In this document: positions 34-21,555 of the stretch, in pieces | How the letters are laid out: each line of letters opens with the position of its first letter | Numbering within the stretch: position 1 is the first letter of the stretch | Assembly: GCF_000003605.2 (NCBI RefSeq) | Contig: NW_003112969.1 | Coordinates: forward strand, 74,554 to 107,130 | Length of the DNA stretch: 32,577 bases | Reading direction: 5' to 3' | Source: Saccoglossus kowalevskii | Taxonomy: Eukaryota > Hemichordata > Enteropneusta > Harrimaniidae | Notes under the pieces: generated by a model | The model's database searches: none | Told to the model about the DNA's origin: nothing | What the model saw: the letters and a program-made list of their open reading frames with translations, nothing else | Program-made: the position numbers and the translations under genes

Positions 34-134
34 CTTATGTCAATACAGCACTCAAATTTGTCCGTAATTGGATTATTCACTAGTGTGATGGTGCTGTTTC
101 GGGTTCTATGTTGAACCCTTCATCAGTACTTGAC
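34..134 (-). ncRNA. Hammerhead-ribozyme-like motif in PLE tail
   Basis: Seen on the minus strand: the core CTGATGA (126-120); an extra A (119); helix II GGGTTC/GAACCC (118-113 with 106-101) capped by AACATA; the core GAAA (100-97); helix III CAGCAC/GTGCTG (96-91 with 51-46), six perfect pairs plus A97-T45; a 39-nt loop; the cleavage-site-like T45-A44; and helix I of five pairs (GTCAA 134-130 with TTGAC 43-39). All three helices and both core boxes are in type I hammerhead order. Odd points: three unpaired bases (129-127) lie between helix I and the core, one extra A sits between core and helix II, and helix III has a long loop. Known: metazoan PLEs carry hammerhead motifs in their flanking repeats, and an extra base at the A9/helix II junction is known from the CChMVd viroid ribozyme. 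Activity is not shown by sequence alone. Confidence 0.66.
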
Positions 135-151
135 CGAATCGTTCGATTTAT

Positions 152-2860
152 TTAGCTTTCAGAATATTCGACGTTATTACTTTCATTATACAATTTAGTT
201 AAAATAGAAAGTAATTCTTCGTCGTTTGGTATGTCGTTTTTCACGAGTTTGTCGGTACGTAGAGTAGAACTTGCAAGTTTTTTTTTCAAGTTGGTATTTC
301 TACGAAATGCAATAAGGGGATGATTTGGAAAATGTTACAGAGTAATAGATCATTCCGGATTAAGTCCCAGTTTTTTAATGGTGCTCTTTTGAGCCTGTAC
401 CCTTGTATATAAGGGTTGAATGTAGTTGTGAATATTGTTTGCCCTTCATTATTAGGCATTGATTCACGTAAATGTGAGATACAATTGTTATGTTCATTAA
501 TTAAAGTGTATTTTTCGATATCGTTATCTGTGTAATCTCTTTCACGCATTTTTTCAGTAAATAAATTACGTTTATGTAAGAAATCGTTTATATTATTACA
601 TGTGCGAGCATACCGAATAGTTTCGCTTTTGAAAAATCCTTTGAATACTGATGTAGGGTGACAAGAATTACGTTTCAAATATTGAAAATATATTCAAGTA
701 TATTCAGATCATGGAAGCGTTGTCCTTTATATAGGTCAAGGTACGTGACTTGTGTCATGGAGTATTCAAATGTGAGCCAGTATTTGTGATGAATCATATT
801 GGCATCCTGAACAAATTTGTGTAATTTAAGTACGGTATTTTTGAATACCATGAAGATGTCATCTCGAAAACGATACCATGTTTTAATATAACGAGCACCA
901 AGTAGTAAAATCTGATTTTCCAGTAGGTGGAATGTAATGTCAGCAATCTCAGGTGAAGACGGTGATCCCATGCTAACTCCACATGTTTGGGTATAATATT
1001 CATTATTAAACTCGAAAGTATTTCTTTTCAGAATGATTTCAAGGAGCTTAATTATATATTCCAAAGGTAGTGGTTTCAAAGGACTATCACTGTGTAATTC
1101 GATTGCATTGCATTAGCGGTTGCTCGGATCGCTTCTTCGTGAACAGTATTAGTATACATTGATACAACATCCAAGGTTACTAGGACGTTATTATCAGATA
1201 CTTGTATATTTTCGATTTTGTTAATAAAATCTGTAGTATCTTTGATATAGCTATGTTGCCTTTTAACGATTGGAATTAAAAAAGTGGTCAATAAATTCTG
1301 ATATTTTCTCTGTGGGGCCAGAGCAACCACTGATTATCGGGCTACCGACAAATATACTGCCCTCTGGTGGTGGTTTGTGTACTTTAGGCAGTAAATACCA
1401 CCGAGGCGTTCTAACTTTGTAGTTAAATGGGTCTGTATATTTATACGTGTCTTAATCGATTAATTCCAGATTGTACATTTCTGTAACGAGCTCATGGACC
1501 AAATTAGCTGTAGTAACTATAGTAGTAACTATAGTATCGTTACCACTAATTTTAGTATAGTATTGCTCGTTGTTTAATTGACGAAGGCTTTCATATATAT
1601 GGTCAGTTGTATTCATGATTGCAATGCCTCGACCCTTGTCGAATGGTTTTATTACAATTATGTTATCATGACGTAATCTATTTATTGCTGCTCTTTCGGC
1701 AGAATTCATGTTTTGTTTGGGTTTATTGGTAGTAATTTTGGATATCTCAAATTTGATTGCCTCAATGTAATTTTCGAGGCTACTGTTATTCGAGTCTGGT
1801 GGGTTCTATGTTGATTTCATTTTGAAAGGATGTTGTTGAGATTATTTATTGCATTAAATATTTGATACGCATTCTCCTAGATAGCATAGACATGTCATTG
1901 AGCAAAGTGTGATAGGTTGGCTTAGGTGGGGTTGGTATAAATTTGAGTCCTTTGCCAAGGGCATTGACCTCTGTTGGGGTAAGAATTCTACTCGAAAAAT
2001 TCCAAATAAAACTTGAGACCAACCGAGCTAGATCAGCCAACCGTTTACTTTTATCCAGTTTAGCATTGTAATTCTTTCTTCGTTTGCATCTTGCAATGTG
2101 TTTCTTACGTTTTGTGTTATTGATTGTATGGACAGAATCCTTAGTAATAACGGTACTTCTCTTTTTGGAGGATGTGGTGGCCCTAAAAAGGGCCGTCTGG
2201 TTAGTGTGCCGAAGCACTGGTTTATTTGAGGCTAGAAGTACGTTTCCTGCCCTTTCGGGAGTCCTGCACTCTTTTCCTCGATTGTTTAAGGAATTGCCTC
2301 AGTTTATTAACAGTCAGAGCCTGATGTTCGTCTCCAGCCAGACATTTGATATCTTCAAACGCTCCCTTCTCTTCCTTTACCAGAACGGCCTGAAATTGTT
2401 TCACATGTGTCGGCAAATACATATCCAGTAGTTTAGTGTACTGTTTCGATGCCTGGTTTGAGATAAGTTCCCACTTTTGTAGGAATGCCGTAGACGGCTT
2501 CAAACCAGGTATAACGTTCTCTTTAAAACCACTAAATCCTTAGGAATTTGTCCCGATAATGAAAATTTATTGATCGATCTAATCTGATTAACAATAGAAG
2601 ACTCAATCCGGTAACATTTGGATAAAGATTTAACCTTACCCTTGATTTCAGAGAAGAGAGCATCTGGTAAACGTCTATGTGCTGGCGGCGTTGGTGCAGA
2701 ATGACAGTTTGGCTGTCTGTAGTCAGGTCGAGCATATGCGTATCAAACACCACGTCAAAATCTTCGATAGTGCTGATATCTTCTGCTGCAGACATGTTGA
2801 CATAGGCTTTCTTCGTATTCAGTTTCGTATTCCAATATTGTTTCCGTGTTCACTTCTATC
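152..2860 (-). pseudogene. Broken reverse transcriptase ORF of the PLE
   Basis: Read on the minus strand, the ORF opens before the Met codon at 2795 (open from about 2855). Lesions follow: a frameshift plus stop near 2532-2505, a frameshift near 2222, a TAA at about 1848, a TAG near 1809 inside 'KST*NPPD', an in-frame TAA near 1452 between 'LELID' and 'DTYKYTDP', a frameshift near 1275 between 'EFIDHF' and 'LIPIVKRQ', a shift near 1076, an apparent deletion near 690-675 (motif C region runs straight into 'RNSCHPTSVF'), and a frameshift near 290. The last segment reads 'RNTNLKKKLASSTLRTDK' and stops at 152-154. The catalytic Asp of motif A and the Asp pair of motif C are still present. There is no GIY-YIG endonuclease motif between the thumb and the final stop. 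Family assignment is strong; the exact lesion positions are hand-read. Confidence 0.85.
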
Positions 2861-3470
2861 GATCTCACATCTGAATTATTTTAACACGGAATGATACGTC
2901 TGTTACGTATTTAGTTAGCTAATGCAATACTGCCCTCAGTCGGTAAGATGTTCGTCAATCCACCCCCCCCCCCCCATCGATATAAGAGTTGAAAACAAAT
3001 TATAGGTTTTTTGAATTTCCCCTGAGATAACAACGTAAATTGGGACCAAAACGTTATTTGCAATATTTCAGGGACAGCAGTGACATGGCATAACGTACGG
3101 GACTTAACCATTGTTTACCCTTGAGGGGAACTGAAATTACTCGCATTTGAGGTGTCATCATAAGCGGATGGTGAAAACCTTGTTTATGCAATGAAAAAGT
3201 AAAGAACTTGAACGTACTTTAGCACAAATTCATTGTTTGTTTGATTGATTGCATTAGTCTTTAGTGCACAAACCTAAGCGGCCGTCCCTCACCAAATGAT
3301 TTAGCCCACGCATCTTCCGTTTTTATGCAAACTGGAAAGTTCGAATTACTAAACGATGTACATTACGGCGAAGCTGAAATATCCAAGAACCAACAAATAC
3401 CAACAATTATATCTCAAAAATAAATATTCGTGGTATATTTTAAGTCTAACCGGACCGAAAAAGAGATTTT
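2861..3470. other. Flank between PLE and GCNT-like 3' UTR
   Basis: No coding gene is seen. The stretch holds a run of 13 C at 2963-2975 and AT-rich unique sequence. A 66-codon minus-strand frame at 2911-3111 spans the poly-C run and has no recognisable content. No second copy of the hammerhead motif and no terminal repeat matching 34-134 was found here. Confidence 0.5.
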
Positions 3471-3757: not shown

Positions 3758-3981
3758 TAATTACCAGATGCAACTTACGCTGACACAACCTCATTCTAAT
3801 GAGAAAACGGTAATAGCCGATGATAGTAGTGTCACCATGACAAATATCGAAGCAATCGATGTACGTACAGATGGAATATGAAACTTTGGACGTTTCTTGC
3901 ATGTTTGTTTTTCATATAACGTTCCCCCCTTTCGTTCTGTGCCGCCTATAGTTGGATTGTCGGATCGACCCATCATCGATA

Positions 3982-5340
3982 TCAAGTTGCACCTTTAACG
4001 TGTGGTAATTTGTTATAGTAGCTGGGATCAAACCGCACTGGGTGCTTAGTACGATGACGTAACAACTCTTCCTGGCAGTCTATCACCAGCGAATCAAATC
4101 GTCTGTCAAACTTATTGACGAAAAGCTGAGGTTGCTGAACAAGGCGTGGGAGATCCCCGAGAGAGAACACACATATTGAGCGAACGGATCGGCCATGACA
4201 CGCAGTATTACGAAAGTTAGACTCCCAAAGTTTTGATCTCGATATAATTGTTTTAGTATCACCTGGGTACCCACCGGCAACACCTGCTAGACGGTTCAGA
4301 GATGAGAAGAAATGTTCATCAGGGCATTTCGTATCGGATAACCAGGAGAAGAACTCCTTCGCTAGTTTATCATTAAGAGTGAAATTAACAAACTCTCTGG
4401 TGAGAAGAACGTGGAACTCGCCTTTATATACAGTTATGTTACTCGGCGGGGCTTCTTTAAATTTTGACGGGTATATAGGGCTTATTATATTGTTGTTAAT
4501 CGTATGGGAGTACAGGTGACGACTTGGGTCACTATTCCTTATAGAATGAACGTCGTTTTTCCCCTTCAACGTTTTTAACACTTGTACGATTTCATAGTTG
4601 GTTTTGAGAGGGAAATCCTGACCGCAGAGATTGATAAAATACTTCCATTTGTACTCGCTATTAATTAAGTCTCGCATACAGTTCATCTCTGCCTGCAACA
4701 CACTGATTGAGCAGTGGGTAACCATTTCTAATTGTGATGCGAGAAAAACGTTGTCAAAGCAACGGGCTACGCTCTTCATCGCTTTGTGCGTCTCCCACGG
4801 CGACTTGGCATCGACATGGATACAGTAGACGTTTTGTGGCATGTAAATCATTCTCATCAACTGAGTAACTTGCTGCACAGACTTGTACATTAAAATACTG
4901 TACGCAATAGGGAAGCTCGCTTCCATCTTTGACAGTGGTTTGCTGTAAAACCCCTCATTTTCTCTGAAACTCGCACACTCCTTGGTAATTTCCAAATAGT
5001 TCAAGTCAGGAATCCAATGGTATTTGGAATATAGTTCATTTCTCTTACTAGTAAGTATGGCGTTGATTCTTGATCTGTTCAACGGAGTTGTGTTCGAACA
5101 TGTTAACTGTACTCCGGCCTTGCGCCGCTTATCTTGTAAAAGCAAAATTGCGTTGTCAGCATCCCTAAATGCATAATCATTGATGAGTTTCCCCGGTGTC
5201 CAGGTTTGTATCGTGTCTTTAATATACCAGAATTGTACGCCAGTCACCAGTAACACAACGATACACAATAGTTTGAGGTCGTTCCGATATTTCGTTGCTT
5301 TCTGAAACTCGATCGAGGACATCTTGACGTTTTTCACCAA
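3982..5340 (-). CDS. GT14 core-2/I-branching beta-1,6-GlcNAc transferase-like
   Basis: The predicted protein has 452 aa in one uninterrupted exon, as is usual for vertebrate GCNT coding regions (human GCNT1 is about 428 aa). Role by family: Golgi transfer of GlcNAc in beta-1,6 linkage onto O-glycan core 1/3 or poly-lactosamine; the exact acceptor cannot be read from sequence. Seen: a short cytosolic tail, a signal anchor at about residues 22-40, then a lumenal domain. Family blocks include 'IHVDAKSPWETHKAM' (175-189), 'FINLCGQDFPLKTNYEIV' (235-252), 'CPDEHFFSSL' (339-348) and 'RSICVFSLGDLPRLV' (387-401). E342 in the PDE block matches the catalytic base of mouse core-2 GnT. Many lumenal Cys (81, 122, 173, 194, 210, 221, 239, 339, 381, 390, 422) fit the family's disulfides. 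Possible N-glycan sites are at 83, 88, 301 and 319. Start: Met1, with Met7 as an alternative. No lesion is seen; it appears functional. Confidence 0.93.
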   Translation of the reverse strand: MVKNVKMSSIEFQKATKYRNDLKLLCIVVLLVTGVQFWYIKDTIQTWTPGKLINDYAFRDADNAILLLQDKRRKAGVQLTCSNTTPLNRSRINAILTSKRNELYSKYHWIPDLNYLEITKECASFRENEGFYSKPLSKMEASFPIAYSILMYKSVQQVTQLMRMIYMPQNVYCIHVDAKSPWETHKAMKSVARCFDNVFLASQLEMVTHCSISVLQAEMNCMRDLINSEYKWKYFINLCGQDFPLKTNYEIVQVLKTLKGKNDVHSIRNSDPSRHLYSHTINNNIISPIYPSKFKEAPPSNITVYKGEFHVLLTREFVNFTLNDKLAKEFFSWLSDTKCPDEHFFSSLNRLAGVAGGYPGDTKTIISRSKLWESNFRNTACHGRSVRSICVFSLGDLPRLVQQPQLFVNKFDRRFDSLVIDCQEELLRHRTKHPVRFDPSYYNKLPHVKGAT

Positions 5341-5424
5341 TATTCAATCATAGGCGGTTCATTGCTGACTGCAGCATAGTACTTATTGACAACATACTGG
5401 TTTATTTCATTTAAAATTTCTAAT

Positions 5425-8850: not shown

Positions 8851-9872
8851 TTAATTATGCTTGGCTCTCTTGCCTTTCATGTACTCGATCCATCTTTCAA
8901 GAGTGTTTTGAAATAAAGAGTTTTTTTCTATACTGCTTAACAATTGCAGCTGGCTGATATGTGTGGTATGGTAGTCCCATCTAGCAAGCTTAGGCGCGAC
9001 ACCTGTTGTGATATGCCGCAGATCATAAACAGTCCCTGAGCCAGTGTCGTAGAGTGGCAGTAATGCTTTTAACGATGTCAATCCTTCGCGGTACAATCGT
9101 TCGGCTTCTACTCTGTCTTCATCTGATGCAGTCATCATCAGATCATATAGACCAATCAGGCTGTAGATAAAACCGTTTAAAACAAACGAACTTGGATTGG
9201 TGGGATATTCCTCATACCAAGGGTACTTATCTAAAAATACTGCTTTAACTCCACCTTGAGATGAAAGTTTATTAAAAGGATACGTTGCTTTTAATGCTGC
9301 TTTGAGGTATTCTGGTTTTCCAGATTTACGATATGCACGTACAAGTACAGACATGGCATGGCCCTGCGCCATTGCCGAGTACCACCCTGGAGGCAGTTCA
9401 CCCATCTCATCAATTAAAATACGTGTGATCCAAATGGGCCAACCTCCTTTCTTGTCCTGGTTATTCAACAGCCAATTAGCTGCGTCATAAAAATGAGCCA
9501 TGTGTGCCGTGGTTGAAAGCTTAACATTGTCAATTCGGCCAAATCCTTGTACAGACAGCTTCACGATGCTTCGTAGACTCACTTTGGCTTTCTTCACCGA
9601 CTTGCCATTTGTTTGCCCAACACCCTTTCTCAAATCGTTTAGCAAATCTCTGGTAAACGTTCTCCATGATCTGCAGCTGCCCAGCCCATAATAAATATGC
9701 GTTCCTCTACGACTGATCGCTTCTCTGCTTGTCGTGTAATGAATATGAAAATACTTGTCTTTATCACTAGTGTCCAAGATAACCAATATTGTGCAGTTAT
9801 CAAAACATTTAAAATCAAAGGACAGCTCAAAATCTTCTGAATTTTTCAAATTCAAAGTTACCGAAGGACTTC
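8851..9872 (-). CDS. GLCE: GLCE coding exon 3 (catalytic domain)
   Basis: The terminal exon encodes the last 339 aa, with most of the catalytic domain; the stop TAA is at 8853-8851. Two AG acceptors six bases apart (exon start 9872 or 9878) both keep the frame. The second adds two residues after the split codon, so that the sequence begins Asp-Thr-Gly-Ser instead of Gly-Ser. The block after the junction, 'SVTLNLKNSEDFELSFDFK', aligns with human. Confidence 0.95.
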
Positions 9873-12800
9873 CTGTATCTGTGTGAGAATAAAAAGTAGA
9901 TTTTACTTATCGATAAAAAAATAGTGAATTTCAACTGTAGTTTGGAGCATGTACTGTGAAATACTTTATTTTAGCTGGAATTAATTTTCGCTGAAAATAC
10001 TTTTTTGGTGTTTTTTTATATGGAATTTATTTTCACTGTATTTTGACGAGTTGAATGTAAAATATAGGGAAAAAAAGTATACTCGCTGAATTTTTTTTTT
10101 CACTGAATCATTCATATAGCGAAAATTAATTCCAGTATGTGAAAAGTGAATGCTCTCCAGAAAAGTGAAAAACAAAAATGTCGCCCTCTTGAGTTGTGTT
10201 TCTACTTAAAAAATCATAGTGAACTCTAGAGGGAGACATGTATAGCAATGAAACCATTGATTAATTTGGTACATGTACATGCAGCTTACATAAATTCTAT
10301 AGAAAACACACTAATTCTGAAATCTCCCATGAAATAAACATAAGACTTCCATTTTTAAAGTGGTTGAAGTTAGTTGGCCACAGATTCATTTTTCAAAATT
10401 ATGATTTGCTGCACCTTGACCTATGTATATGTACATGTATGCCCTTACCTGTAATAAATTCTATAACTCGACTTCCTTTTTCTTCATCTAATACATTTTC
10501 AACATGGCTTTTTGTATTACCTAGCAACCATCCTGGCATGGCAGTATTCTCACCATTTTCATACACAATAACTCTTGGCTCCTGTTCTGTTAAATTTTTA
10601 CTGTAGTGACTCAGTCCAAATTGAGCAATCTGAATTGGATAGAAGTACCCTTGAGGACCCCACTGTGTGGAGATAGGAACACCTGTAATTTAAACATAGA
10701 TATACACAGTAAGTCCAAAAACAAATAAGCAATGGTGGCGTCACATATTGACTGTGTTCCTAACATTGAGCCAGACACACAGTATAGAGTGCTGTGATGT
10801 TATTCGTTTACATCTTTTTCAAACCAGTACATGTATGTCGATTTCTGATAAAATGTCATCAGCACTATTTTTCAGTTTGTTGAAATTTGCGTATCTATGC
10901 AAATAAACACTGGTTCAATGCTTCAATAAGGCAAAAGTTATTTTTTTTTTAAATATATTTAATGTTCATGCTGGTTTGGCTGTTGTGGTAATGGTTTCAG
11001 CTTTGTGGCACATTACACAAAAACACGGCTGTTTAAGTGAAACTATTGCTGCACATTTGCAGTTAATTCCCCATTTTGAAATAAACATACAGTCGGCATT
11101 AGTCTAAGCGCAAAAAGGGATCCAATCTGAAATTATATACTGTATAATACTTTATTTTCACTTGGAATTTATTTTTGCTGAAGGAATGATTGAGTGAAAA
11201 TAAAATCTAGTGAAAATACTTTTTTTTTCTATATTCTACATTCAACTCATCAATTACCAGTGAAAATAAATTCCACTGAAAACACTCGAAAGTCTTTTCA
11301 GCAAAAATTAATTCAAGGTAAAATAAAGTATTTTACAGTATACATGCATGCTTGTAATAAAAATGGTGCAGTCACGTGATTGCATTTTCTCCATACATAG
11401 TTGTGACGTTTACCGCACCATATCATGTATTTTATGTTGAACGACATAATTGTAAATGGCATGAACCGTGGTTATCTGACAAATACATGAATATGTACCA
11501 TGAAATTTCTCATAATAATGTACCAGACCCCAGGGCAGATAACTTCCAAATTTTAACACCCCAGTAAAAAATTTTTAACACAATGCCTACTAACATTCCC
11601 AGCATGCAATGTGTTCAAATATATTGTTCATTGTTTGTGATTTTAGCGTCATCCATCAGAAGAGGTTAGCGTTCAACTTTATCCAATAACATTATTTAGT
11701 ATTATTTAGTAAAATTGGAATATTTTATTTTTTATTAAAGTGGACAATGACAATTTTTTACCAGACTACATATGATGTTGATGTTTTTTAGACTGGAAAG
11801 TTACCCATCCTGGGCATTTGGGCAGTAATTTCACAGGGTCCATAGCACCAAGAGCCAAATGATTTCCAAGACTTTTCCAGACCTTTGCTTGTACAGCTAC
11901 AATTATGAGAGGACGATAAAAATTGATTCAAATTTTTTAAAATAAATCTATAAAGAAATTTGTTTTTTAACAAGATCGTATAAAATTTGAGATGTTGAAA
12001 ATGGATATTTTTCCAAAATTGTTCATGGCATTTCAGACAGTTTCTCAAAAAATTGCATGACGTTAGAACCCGATTTCTTGTTTCAGCTCAAGGTATTCTG
12101 ATGACATGAACCAATAATGAAGCATGAAGAAGATGAAATCTAATCTTCAGTTTGTTCCGAACCTCTTTAAAGAGTGCATAGTGTTACATAACTTGCTTGC
12201 TCATGTGTTTATGCGATAATCCTATTGGTATTTTTTTGAATTCATAACAATTATCTCGACATTCCTGCAATCAGGACAGCATACATATACAGGCTGTATC
12301 TTGTTACTGAAGAGAGGAGGGTCAGTGACTATTTTGTTAATACAGAAATATTATGGTAATATACTGTAAAACATGTTTAAATAGCTACACACCATTTTAG
12401 CGAATTTGAATCCATGCATGAATTAACTGAATTTTAATTTAGCTGAAGTACCAACAATCTCATTGCGAGAATATACTTTATTTTATTATTAGTGACATCT
12501 TGAATTACCGTAGTGTAATTACAGATTAGCTAAATTAGCTAAAATAACATGCTAGCTAAAAAGACATGTTTCACAGTAGTTCAAACAGAGTTTAATGTTT
12601 ATATAATTGTTTATATAATACAGTAAAAAGCAGAAAACTGGGGATGTTATTAATGTTTTATAAATATCTATTTTTATCAATCAAAATGGCTGTTAGATTT
12701 CAAATTGACTAATCCAGCACTGTCCAATCAGCAAGCGCTTCATTGGGCAGTCAAACTTTCTATTAGGGCCATTAAAAATGTTGAGCTTTTGAGCCAATCA

Positions 12801-18694: not shown

Positions 18695-21555
18695 TCTGAT
18701 TCTATATTTCCCAGATTTCCATTGTACAATAATTTGTAAGGTTCCATTGTACAATATTTCCCAGGGTTCCATTGTACAATATTTCCCAGGGTTCCATTGT
18801 ACAATATTTCCTAGGGTTCCATGCTAAAATACTTCCCAGGGTTTCATTTTACAATATTCCATTCTACAATGATGTGTATGGTTCTATTCTACATTATTTC
18901 CCAGGGTTCCATGCTACAAAACTTCCAGGGTTTCATTTTACAATATTTCATTCTACAATGATGTGTATAATTTCATTCAACAATATTTCCCAGGGTTCCA
19001 TTCTACAATATTTCCCAGGGTTTCATTTTACAATATTCCAGGTTACACAAATTTGCAAGGTTCCATTCTACAATATTTCCCAGGGTTCCATGCTACAATA
19101 CTTCCCAGGGTTTCATTTTACAATATTCCATTCTACAATAATTTGTATGGTTCCATTCTACAATATTTCCCAGGGTTCCATTCTACAACATTTCCCAGGG
19201 TTCCATGCTACAATACTTCCAGGGTTTCATTTTACAATATTCCATTCTACAATAATTTGTATGGTTCCATTCTACAATATTTCCCAGGGTTCCATTCTAC
19301 AACATTTCCGCGGGTTCCATTCTACAATATCTCCCAGGGTTTTATTTTACAATATTCCATTCTACAATAATGTGTATGGTTCCATTCTACAATATTTCCC
19401 AGGGTTCCATTCTACAATATTTCCCAGGGTTCCATTCTACAATAATTCCCAGGGTTTCATTTTACAATATTCCATTCTACAATAATTTGTATGGTTCAAT
19501 TCTACAATATTTCCCAGGGTTCCATTCTACAATATTTCCCAGGGTTCCATTCTACAATACTTCCCAGGGTTTTATTTTACAATATTCCATTCTACAATAA
19601 TGTGTATGGTTCCATTCTACAATATTTCCCAGGGTTCCATTCTATAATAATTCCCAGGGTTCCATTCTACAATAATTCCCAGGGTTTCATTTTACAATAT
19701 TCCATTCTACAATAATTTGTATGGTTCAATTCAACAATAATTCCCAGGGTTCCATTCTACAAAACTTCCCAGGGTTTTATTTTACAATATTCCATTCTAC
19801 AATAATGTGTATGGTTCCATTCTACAATATTTCCCAGGGTTCCATTCTACAATATTTCCCAGGGTTCCATTCTACAATATTTCCCAGGGTTCTATTCTAC
19901 AATATTTCCCAGGGTTCCATGCTACAATACTTCCAGGGTTTCGTTTTACAATATTCCATTCTACAATAATTTGTAAAGTTCCATTCTACAATATTTCCCA
20001 GGGTTCCATTCTACAATAATTCCCAGGGTTTCATTTTACAATATTCCATTCTACAATAATTTGTATGGTTCAATTCTACAATATTTCCCAGGGTTCCATT
20101 CTACATCATTTCCCAGGGTTCCATTCTACAATACTTCCCAGGGTTTTATTTTACAATATTCCATTCTACAATAATGTGTATGGTTCCATTCTACAATATT
20201 TCCCAGGGTTCCATTCTATAATATTTCCCAGGGTTCCATTCTACAATAATTCCCAGGGTTTCATTTTACAATATTCCATTCTACAATAATTTGTATGGTT
20301 CAATTCTACAATATTTCCCAGGGTTCCATTCTACAAAACTTCCCAGGGTTTTATTTTACAATATTCCATTCTACAATAATGTGTATGGTTCCATTCTACA
20401 ATATTTCCCAGGGTTCCATTCTACAATATTTCCCAGGGTTCCATTATACAATATTTCCCAGGGTTCTATTCTACAATATTTCCCAGGGTTCCATGCTACA
20501 ATACTTCCAGGGTTTCGTTTTACAATATTCCATTCTACAATAATTTGTAAAGTTCCATTCTACAATATTTCCCAGGGTTCCATTCTACAATAATTCCCAG
20601 GGTTCCATTCTACAATAATTCCCAGGGTTTCATTTTACAATATTCCATTCTACAATAATTTGTATGGTTCAATTCTACAATATTTCCCAGGGTTCCATTC
20701 TACAAAACTTCCCAGGGTTTTATTTTACAATATTCCATTCTACAATAATGTGTATGGTTCCATTCTACAATATTTCCCAGGGTTCCATTCTACAATATTT
20801 CCCAGGGTTCCATGCTACAATACTTCCAGGGTTTCGTTTTACAATATTCCATTCTACAATAATTTGTAAAGTTCCATTCTACAATATTTCCCAGGGTTCC
20901 ATTCTACAATATTTCCCAGGGTTCCATGCTACAATACTTCCAGGGTTTCGTTTTACAATATTCCATTCTACAATAATTTGTAAAGTTCCATTCTACAATA
21001 TTTCCCAGGGTTCCATTCTACAATATTTCCCAGGGTTCCATTCTATAATATTTCTCAGAGTTCCATTCTCTAATACTTCCCCAGGGTTTCATTTACAATA
21101 ATCCATAGAATTTTAATGCACAATATTTTTTCATGATTCCAGTGTACAATATTTCCAGGGTCCCAATTCTTCAATATTTCCCAGTGTTCGATTCTACAAT
21201 ATTTCCCAGGATCCCATATTTCAATATTTCCCAGGGTTCCATCTTACAATTTTTCCCAGGGTTCAATTCTACAATATTTCCGAGGGTTCAATTCTACAAT
21301 ATTTCTTAGGGTTCCATCCTACAATTTTTCCCAGGGTTTCATTTTTACAATATTTCTCAGGGTTCGATTTTTACAATATTTCCCAGGGTTCCATTCTACA
21401 ATATTTCCCAGGGTTCCATTCTACAATATTTCCCAGGATCCCATCCTACAATATTTTCTTGACTTTCTTTCTATGATGTTACCTAGAATTCCATGCTATA
21501 ACATTTTCTAGGATTCAGTGCAATAACATTCCACAGGATTCCATTTTATCAGGGT
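18695..21555. repeat. 25-bp minisatellite array, ~2.8 kb, higher-order
   Basis: The unit is GGGTTCCATTCTACAATATT + TCCCA, in roughly 110 variant copies. Variants include GTTTCATTTTACAATATTCC, a short 15-bp unit ending AATAATTTGTAT or AATAATGTGTAT, and AATAATTCCCAG forms. The variants form a higher-order repeat of about 115 bp, itself arranged in longer blocks. Units at both edges (before about 18900 and after about 21050) are more diverged than the middle. It probably lies in the 5' UTR intron or upstream DNA of GLCE. Plus-strand open frames across it are a product of repetition, not genes. Confidence 0.95.
19491..20638. repeat. Two 574-bp tandem blocks within the minisatellite
   Basis: Block 1 (19491-20064) and block 2 (20065-20638) match almost base for base. 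Landmark units (GTATGGTTCAATTC) occur at 19491 and 19721 in block 1 and at 20065 and 20295 in block 2, with the same 230-bp step. A third, partial block starts with the same landmark at 20664, 369 bp on instead of 344, which fits one extra 25-bp unit near 20589-20613. Confidence 0.8.

What the first reader, a model, noticed from the sequence alone, without database searches (positions are those of the whole stretch)
34..134. Hammerhead-like ribozyme in the tail of a Penelope-like element
Both invariant core boxes (CTGATGA and GAAA) and three complementary helices fall in type I hammerhead order just after the RT stop codon. Helix III has six perfect pairs plus the A-U closing pair; helix I has five. 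It departs from the minimal metazoan PLE form: a long 39-nt helix III loop, a three-base bulge next to the core, and an extra A before helix II. This may be a variant architecture, or a decayed one.
Basis: partly seen in the sequence, partly recalled or inferred. Interest (0 to 1): 0.75.

Follow-up and report, generated by a model that had tools for sequence, protein, structure and literature searches.

The report
Decayed hammerhead ribozyme in retrotransposon tail
A self-cutting RNA motif sits at the end of a family of jumping elements; the copy in this window is broken, but better-preserved copies in the same genome show an unusually complete form and marks that fit cutting in living cells.

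Summary
Nearly 40 sibling stretches in the same 572-Mb genome show a fuller type I hammerhead after the reverse transcriptase ORF: CTGATGA, an extra A, 6-bp helix II, GAAA, 7-pair helix III, GUA^U, with helix I (CGA/UCG) against the core. Helix III and its 39-nt cap are family features. Reviews describe hammerheads of Penelope-like elements as usually minimal, without helix III, so this is a variant of a known kind. Rfam gives no match, and the siblings show no covariation. The strongest new evidence is indirect: of 6 copies of the downstream 178-nt tail that lack the ribozyme (unbiased search), 3 begin within 0-3 nt of the predicted cut, two of them TSD-flanked. This fits cleavage and retrotransposition of the 3' product in vivo; reverse transcriptase stalling or a promoter there remain rivals. 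The window copy itself is probably inactive.

The parts
36..2979 (-). Penelope-like retroelement copy, frameshifted; 5' end is an inverted copy of the family's 3' tail, and its own direct tail is lost after position 36
   Evidence: homology to siblings ends at 36 (query 965)
120..126 (-). hammerhead core box CTGATGA (C3-A9)
119..119 (-). extra A between A9 and helix II, in 33 of 36 siblings
101..118 (-). helix II GGGTTC-AACATA-GAACCC
97..100 (-). core box GAAA
91..96 (-). helix III 5' strand CAGCAC
52..90 (-). 39-nt cap of helix III; in well-kept siblings predicted to form two small hairpins (UCAC/GUGA and AUCC/GGAU)
   Evidence: folds
45..51 (-). helix III 3' strand GTGCTG plus U16.1 (T45)
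43..44 (-). predicted cleavage site A44^T43 (siblings GUA^UCGAC)
   Evidence: site itself inferred from hammerhead rules
127..128 (-). site of the 9-nt deletion that removed the 5' strand of helix I (siblings ACTGTTCCG)
39..43 (-). helix I 3' strand remnant TTGAC (siblings TCGAC)
2799..2979 (+). family 3' tail in inverted orientation at the 5' end of this copy; its inner end lies at the predicted cleavage site
675..1112 (-). RT fragment with MGSPSSPEIAD and FRDD motifs (motif meaning recalled)
   Evidence: RVT_1 E 3.4e-4, 20.8 bits, under the curated cut-off 29.6; sibling RT E 2.8e-6

Best explanation
The window holds a decayed copy of a small family of Penelope-like retroelements, apparently without GIY-YIG endonuclease, that carry one type I hammerhead ribozyme per unit, just 3' of the RT ORF. 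In well-preserved copies the RNA can fold by itself into a complete hammerhead: helix I CGA/UCG against the core followed by a small internal loop, helix II of 6 bp, helix III of 7 pairs capped by a 39-nt two-hairpin insert, cutting after GUA. Inferred mechanism: transcripts of tandem units are cut there; the 3' product starts at UCGACAUAGG and carries the 178-nt tail ending in CCACCACCCCCAUC, where reverse transcription starts internally; cDNA of that product runs off at the cut and is inserted alone as a solo tail, or joined in inverted orientation to the front of a longer copy, as in this window. Shown: sequence, family, fold prediction, boundary positions, TSDs. Inferred: cleavage, template identity, RT start.
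For: Sibling alignment of 36 copies: both core boxes intact in 24, helix I 3/3 in 30, II 6/6 in 25, III 6/6 in 25, U-H site in 31 of 36. Of the 7 siblings folded over the 112-nt stretch without constraint, C1350's MFE is exactly the hammerhead (z -3.46) and C1848's is the same with one added core pair, C3-G17 (z -4.13). Descriptor: 8 copies versus 0 in 8.2 Mb random. Of 47 tails found by a pattern near the tail's 3' end (0 in the reversed-pattern control), 6 lack body and HHR in the upstream DNA fetched; 3 of the 6 (C4776, C3469, window copy) start 0-3 nt from the site. C4776 has an exact 11-bp TSD, C3469 one of 38 bp with 2 mismatches (read). P of 3 or more in 6 is 0.00014 to 0.016 over the nine choices tried, assuming uniform ends. 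A fourth, C2886, came from a search biased to the site. AC-rich internal RT start and tail parallel the Anolis PLE (PMC11167929, main-text section read).
Against: No Rfam match of hammerhead type for the window or 4 sibling loci; RF00163 over the genome gave 0, uninformative since its control genomes were silent and 73 of 33389 candidates were scored. No covariation in 36 distinct rows: paired cells 94.0% against 94.1% shuffled (likewise). Shared variants are not significantly depleted in the catalytic fold (3 of 42 versus 12 of 70 positions, p 0.16). With upstream CGGTC included, the MFE breaks helix I and pairs part of the core. 5 of 7 folded siblings do not show all three helices, and C1848 has G at H17. 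C4776 starts 2-3 nt past the cut, not on it. The Anolis study found its HHR inactive without protein, dispensable for insertion in vitro, and no reads ending at the site (PMC11167929). Few boundary events.
Confidence: 0.68

Rival explanations
1. The hammerhead is real and folds, but solo-tail boundaries come from reverse transcriptase stalling at helix I, not from cleavage.
For: RT moving 3' to 5' meets the helix I 3' strand at this place; the fold of C1350 is predicted to be stable; boundaries lie 0-3 nt inside the helix rather than exactly at the cut.
Against: A stall is expected where RT first meets the helix, about 13 nt further downstream (to GGCTT in the fold); only C1003's inverted tail, some 10 to 25 nt after the cut, is near there.
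Confidence: 0.3
2. A transcription start site lies at GACATAGG, so the short RNA is a primary transcript and the ribozyme is incidental.
For: PLE pLTRs are thought to carry promoters (PMC11167929 main text; PMC3846280 passages); the tail precedes the next unit in tandem arrays.
Against: It needs a start site to coincide with the predicted cut by chance; promoters were not searched for here.
Confidence: 0.15
3. The motif is a chance or long-dead hammerhead look-alike with no function in the family.
For: No covariation, no Rfam match, no significant constraint signal.
Against: Full architecture absent from 8.2 Mb of random sequence; MFE of the best-kept copy is the hammerhead; PLEs are reported to carry HHRs generally (PMC6155905, PMC7761336 passages).
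Confidence: 0.1
4. One reading: the window copy is an active variant hammerhead with a 3-nt bulge in helix I.
For: RNAfold of the window copy does pair GTCAA/TTGAC (p 0.55-0.80).
Against: 35 of 36 siblings carry the missing 9 nt; the pairing is not conserved; next to the core the window offers one A-T pair followed by T.T and G.G mismatches.
Confidence: 0.04

Closest known systems
Minimal type I hammerheads of Penelope-like elements (Cervera and de la Pena 2014; Lunse et al. 2017; neither paper seen, known through passages of PMC6155905 and PMC7761336)
   Same: Type I order, same core, carried by a PLE-like retroelement in tandem arrays
   Different: Those usually lack helix III and, by the title of Lunse et al., cleave as dimers; here a 7-pair helix III with a 39-nt cap should allow monomer folding. 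HHR lies after the ORF stop
Poseidon element of Anolis carolinensis (PAc; PMC11167929, main text)
   Same: Tandem PLE with HHR, tail, and an AC-rich place where reverse transcription starts
   Different: PAc has a C-terminal GIY-YIG endonuclease, its HHR overlaps the ORF start, and its HHR needed protein; here no GIY-YIG was found
EN-deficient PLEs (Athena of rotifers; abstract and passages of PMC3846280)
   Same: RT without GIY-YIG; more than one ORF (recalled for Athena)
   Different: Athena is associated with telomeres; here dispersed copies, two solo tails with 11-bp TSDs and one with 38 bp
Metazoan non-LTR retrozymes (PMC7229834 passages)
   Same: Type I HHR, tandem DNA repeats, HHR-bounded RNA as likely intermediate
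   Different: Retrozymes are non-autonomous repeats of 150-450 bp; here the unit codes for RT and is about 5.2 kb in two arrays
CChMVd plus-strand hammerhead (legend passage of PMC3705267; De la Pena and Flores 2001, title seen only)
   Same: An extra A in the catalytic core; its place next to A9 is recalled
   Different: A viroid; type III context (recalled)

Membership tests
Type I hammerhead ribozyme | core CUGANGA and GAAA in order | tested here: met
   window yes; siblings 24 of 36 with both CTGATGA and GAAA
Type I hammerhead ribozyme | three helices around the core, helix I abutting it and open-ended | tested here: met
   met in siblings (30, 25, 25 of 36 for I, II, III; MFE of C1350); NOT met for helix I in the window copy
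Type I hammerhead ribozyme | NUH cleavage triplet | tested here: met
   GUA in window; U-H in 31 of 36 siblings
Type I hammerhead ribozyme | Rfam covariance model score at gathering | tested here: not met
   so it is not a member of the Rfam families as modelled
Type I hammerhead ribozyme | covariation in helices | tested here: inconclusive
   one family of decayed copies only; none seen; ORF1 search listed no clear second family
Type I hammerhead ribozyme | self-cleavage | not testable with these tools
   needs bench work
Penelope-like element | reverse transcriptase | tested here: met
   RVT_1 E 2.8e-6 in a sibling, 27.6 bits, under Pfam's cut-off 29.6
Penelope-like element | RT in the PLE/telomerase clade | not tested
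   no eukaryotic RT reference set at hand; motif resemblance recalled; PDB search gave only weak retron RT matches
Penelope-like element | tandem or partial tandem copies, inverted pLTR-like piece at 5' end | tested here: met
   C1928, C4654, C4713 arrays; inverted tail in window and C1003
Canonical (EN-containing) PLE | GIY-YIG endonuclease | tested here: not met
   no GIY-YIG in 4 sibling ORFs at E<=1; leader ORFs only listed, not scanned
EN-deficient PLE (Athena type) | association with telomeric repeats | tested here: inconclusive
   dispersed TSD-flanked tails; a short CCCTAA-like patch in the C4654 leader, not followed up

The most novel reading that the evidence does not exclude
A PLE-type hammerhead that folds as a monomer cuts its transcript in vivo, and the freed 3' product is itself reverse transcribed and inserted, leaving TSD-flanked solo tails and inverted 5' ends whose boundaries are footprints of ribozyme cleavage. 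The ribozyme would thus help to generate the inverted end structure typical of PLEs.
Probability: 0.35. Interest if true: 0.7.

Novelty: new variant of a known kind. Interest (0 to 1): 0.45.

Why it matters
[quoted passage not shown] Insertion boundaries piling up at the predicted cut would be a genomic record of cleavage that can be counted in any genome with PLEs, and a family with its own helix III offers a monomer that can be assayed directly. The window copy alone has little importance: it is probably a dead copy.

Tried and rejected
Tried: Rfam in four ways, no hammerhead match. Covariation within the family, nothing, as expected for copies decaying from one source. Depletion of shared variants in the catalytic fold, p 0.16, not significant. 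ORF1 protein search for a second family to test covariation: 55 of 55 candidates scored, 56 matches; most lie on contigs already known to hold this family, the rest were not fetched, and none is a clear second family. Solved structures: only weak retron RT matches, E 0.33 and 0.35. A second HHR upstream of the ORF: none by a core-and-helix-II pattern in the fetched arrays. A covariance model was built (R1) but not used, since this genome is not searched by model.

Rejected before counting: rows C2441 (run of N) and C2261b (helix II deleted) were left out of alignment A1 (38 siblings aligned, 36 in A1); C1497b and C3459 (interrupted or halved HHR), C2617 and C996 were never in it. Tails joined to body by internal deletion (C948, C2070, C4473, C46, C53 at 383 kb) were not counted as solo, judged partly by eye; C3362's tail was not fetched and is taken as HHR-bearing. 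'Solo' rests on the roughly 100-250 nt upstream that were fetched. C2886 and C1003's inverted tail were kept out of the 6 because the unbiased pattern did not list them (C2886 came by a pattern centred on the site; C1003's was seen in a fetched locus).

Full report
Observation. Rfam gives nothing for the whole window at gathering or for 1-300 at E<=10. The element is a frameshifted copy with an RT fragment (RVT_1 E 3.4e-4, under the curated cut-off) and lies in a 572-Mb eukaryote assembly with 56 matching pieces for its last kilobase and 41 for the ribozyme stretch, the window's own included and one copy split in two; both are lower bounds.

What siblings show. I aligned 38 siblings and kept 36 plus the window in A1. 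Majority form: AAGTACTGTTC CGA CTGATGA A GGGTTC AACAWA GAACCC GAAA CAGCAC [39 nt] GTGCTG TA^TCGACATAGGCTT. The window lacks 9 nt just 5' of the core, between ACTG repeats; 35 of 36 siblings have that stretch ungapped and only C3045 shares the loss. It also reads TTGAC where 30 of 36 siblings read TCGAC. Helix III and its cap, and the extra A (33 of 36), are family features.

Fold. I folded the 112-nt stretch of 7 siblings without constraint. C1350's MFE is a complete hammerhead: helix I CGA/UCG, a small internal loop, then further pairs to AAGU/GCUU; helix II 6 bp; helix III 7 pairs; two hairpins in the cap (z -3.46). C1848's is the same with one added pair between core C3 and G17 (z -4.13); G at H17 should not cleave. 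None of the other 5 shows all three helices: each has mutations of its own. With upstream CGGTC included the MFE prefers a competing hairpin into the core. Descriptor counts: 8 copies in 210 kb against 0 in 8.2 Mb strand-bases of random sequence. No covariation. Rfam also misses the 4 sibling loci tried; the extra A and the long cap may be why, which was not tested.

The element. In arrays C1928 and C4654 (units about 5.2 kb) a unit has a leader with 314-bp repeats, an ORF of about 200 codons overlapping a second in another frame, then the RT, the hammerhead core 34 nt after the stop, and a tail of about 178 nt ending in CCACCACCCCCATC. No GIY-YIG was found in the four ORFs scanned. The window copy has its direct tail cut off after position 36 but carries an inverted tail at its 5' end, 2799-2979; inverted pLTRs at 5' ends are a known PLE trait (PMC3846280, passages). 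Reverse transcription starting internally in an AC-rich place, which explains the PLE tail, is shown for PAc (PMC11167929, main-text section); the AC-rich terminus here suggests the same.

Boundaries at the cut site. A 30-nt pattern near the tail's 3' end with up to 3 mismatches gave 47 places and 0 in the reversed control. Six have no body or HHR in the upstream DNA fetched: C53 at 338 kb (starts 24 nt before the cut), C4776 (+2 to +3, exact 11-bp TSD), C3469 (0 to +2, 38-bp TSD with 2 mismatches, with a 19-nt inverted tail end in front), the window's inverted tail (0 to +2), C2657 (about +105) and C168 (about +125, exact 11-bp TSD). No TSD was found for C2657 or the window copy, and only an 8-bp shared word for C53. 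Three of 6 lie at the predicted cut; P is 0.00014 to 0.016 over the nine window and length choices tried, assuming uniform ends. C2886 also starts at GACATA, without a TSD found, but was met with a pattern centred there; C1003's inverted tail starts some 10 to 25 nt after (by eye). This is a small sample and the choice of window is mine.

Mechanism. Most likely the family's ribozyme cuts tandem transcripts and the 3' product, tail first, can serve as an RT template; run-off at the new 5' end gives solo tails and inverted 5' pieces. Cleavage and template use are inferred. RT stalling at helix I or a start of transcription at the same place would leave similar marks.

Known and new. Hammerheads in PLEs are known; reviews say they usually lack helix III and tertiary contacts (PMC6155905, PMC7761336, PMC7229834; passages). 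In the listings of my seven paper searches I saw no title or opening of an abstract on a PLE hammerhead with a full helix III or on insertion boundaries at its cut; the two primary PLE-HHR papers were not held (2014 paper; 2017 paper), so a described case with a longer helix III cannot be excluded.

Noticed in passing
window 18704-21456: About 2.7 kb array of a 25-bp unit (TTCCATTCTACAATATTTCCCAGGG) with a 115-bp higher-order period, with long ORFs in three frames of the + strand.
   Followed up: no
window 3982-5343 (-): ORF of 453 aa with a core-2/I-branching enzyme domain (PF02485, E 1.2e-47).
   Followed up: no
window 8851-9906 (-): ORF with the domains of D-glucuronyl C5-epimerase (PF06662, PF21174).
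   Followed up: no
window 2963-2975: Run of 13 G in the inverted tail where the other copies listed have 5 or fewer, an expansion at the AC-rich terminus.
   Followed up: no
L012 3453-5678; L009: Leader of tandem units has 314-bp repeats about 85% alike, as in promoter monomers of some LINEs (analogy recalled).
   Followed up: partly
G000:C4713 471-13047 (partly L011): Dense head-to-tail array: seven ORF1 starts within 13 kb.
   Followed up: no
L015, L016, L027, L028, L037, L041, L042, L044: These copies share further sequence after the AC-rich end (like GATAATAAATGCATTGTTAGAGACAG), so another subfamily had a longer tail.
   Followed up: no
L012 about 3930-3970: Short CCCTAA-like patch in the leader, of interest because EN-less PLEs elsewhere are associated with telomeres.
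   Followed up: no
L012 6176-6252: ORF1 and the next ORF overlap in different frames in C4654 and C1928, so a frameshift or two separate proteins.
   Followed up: no
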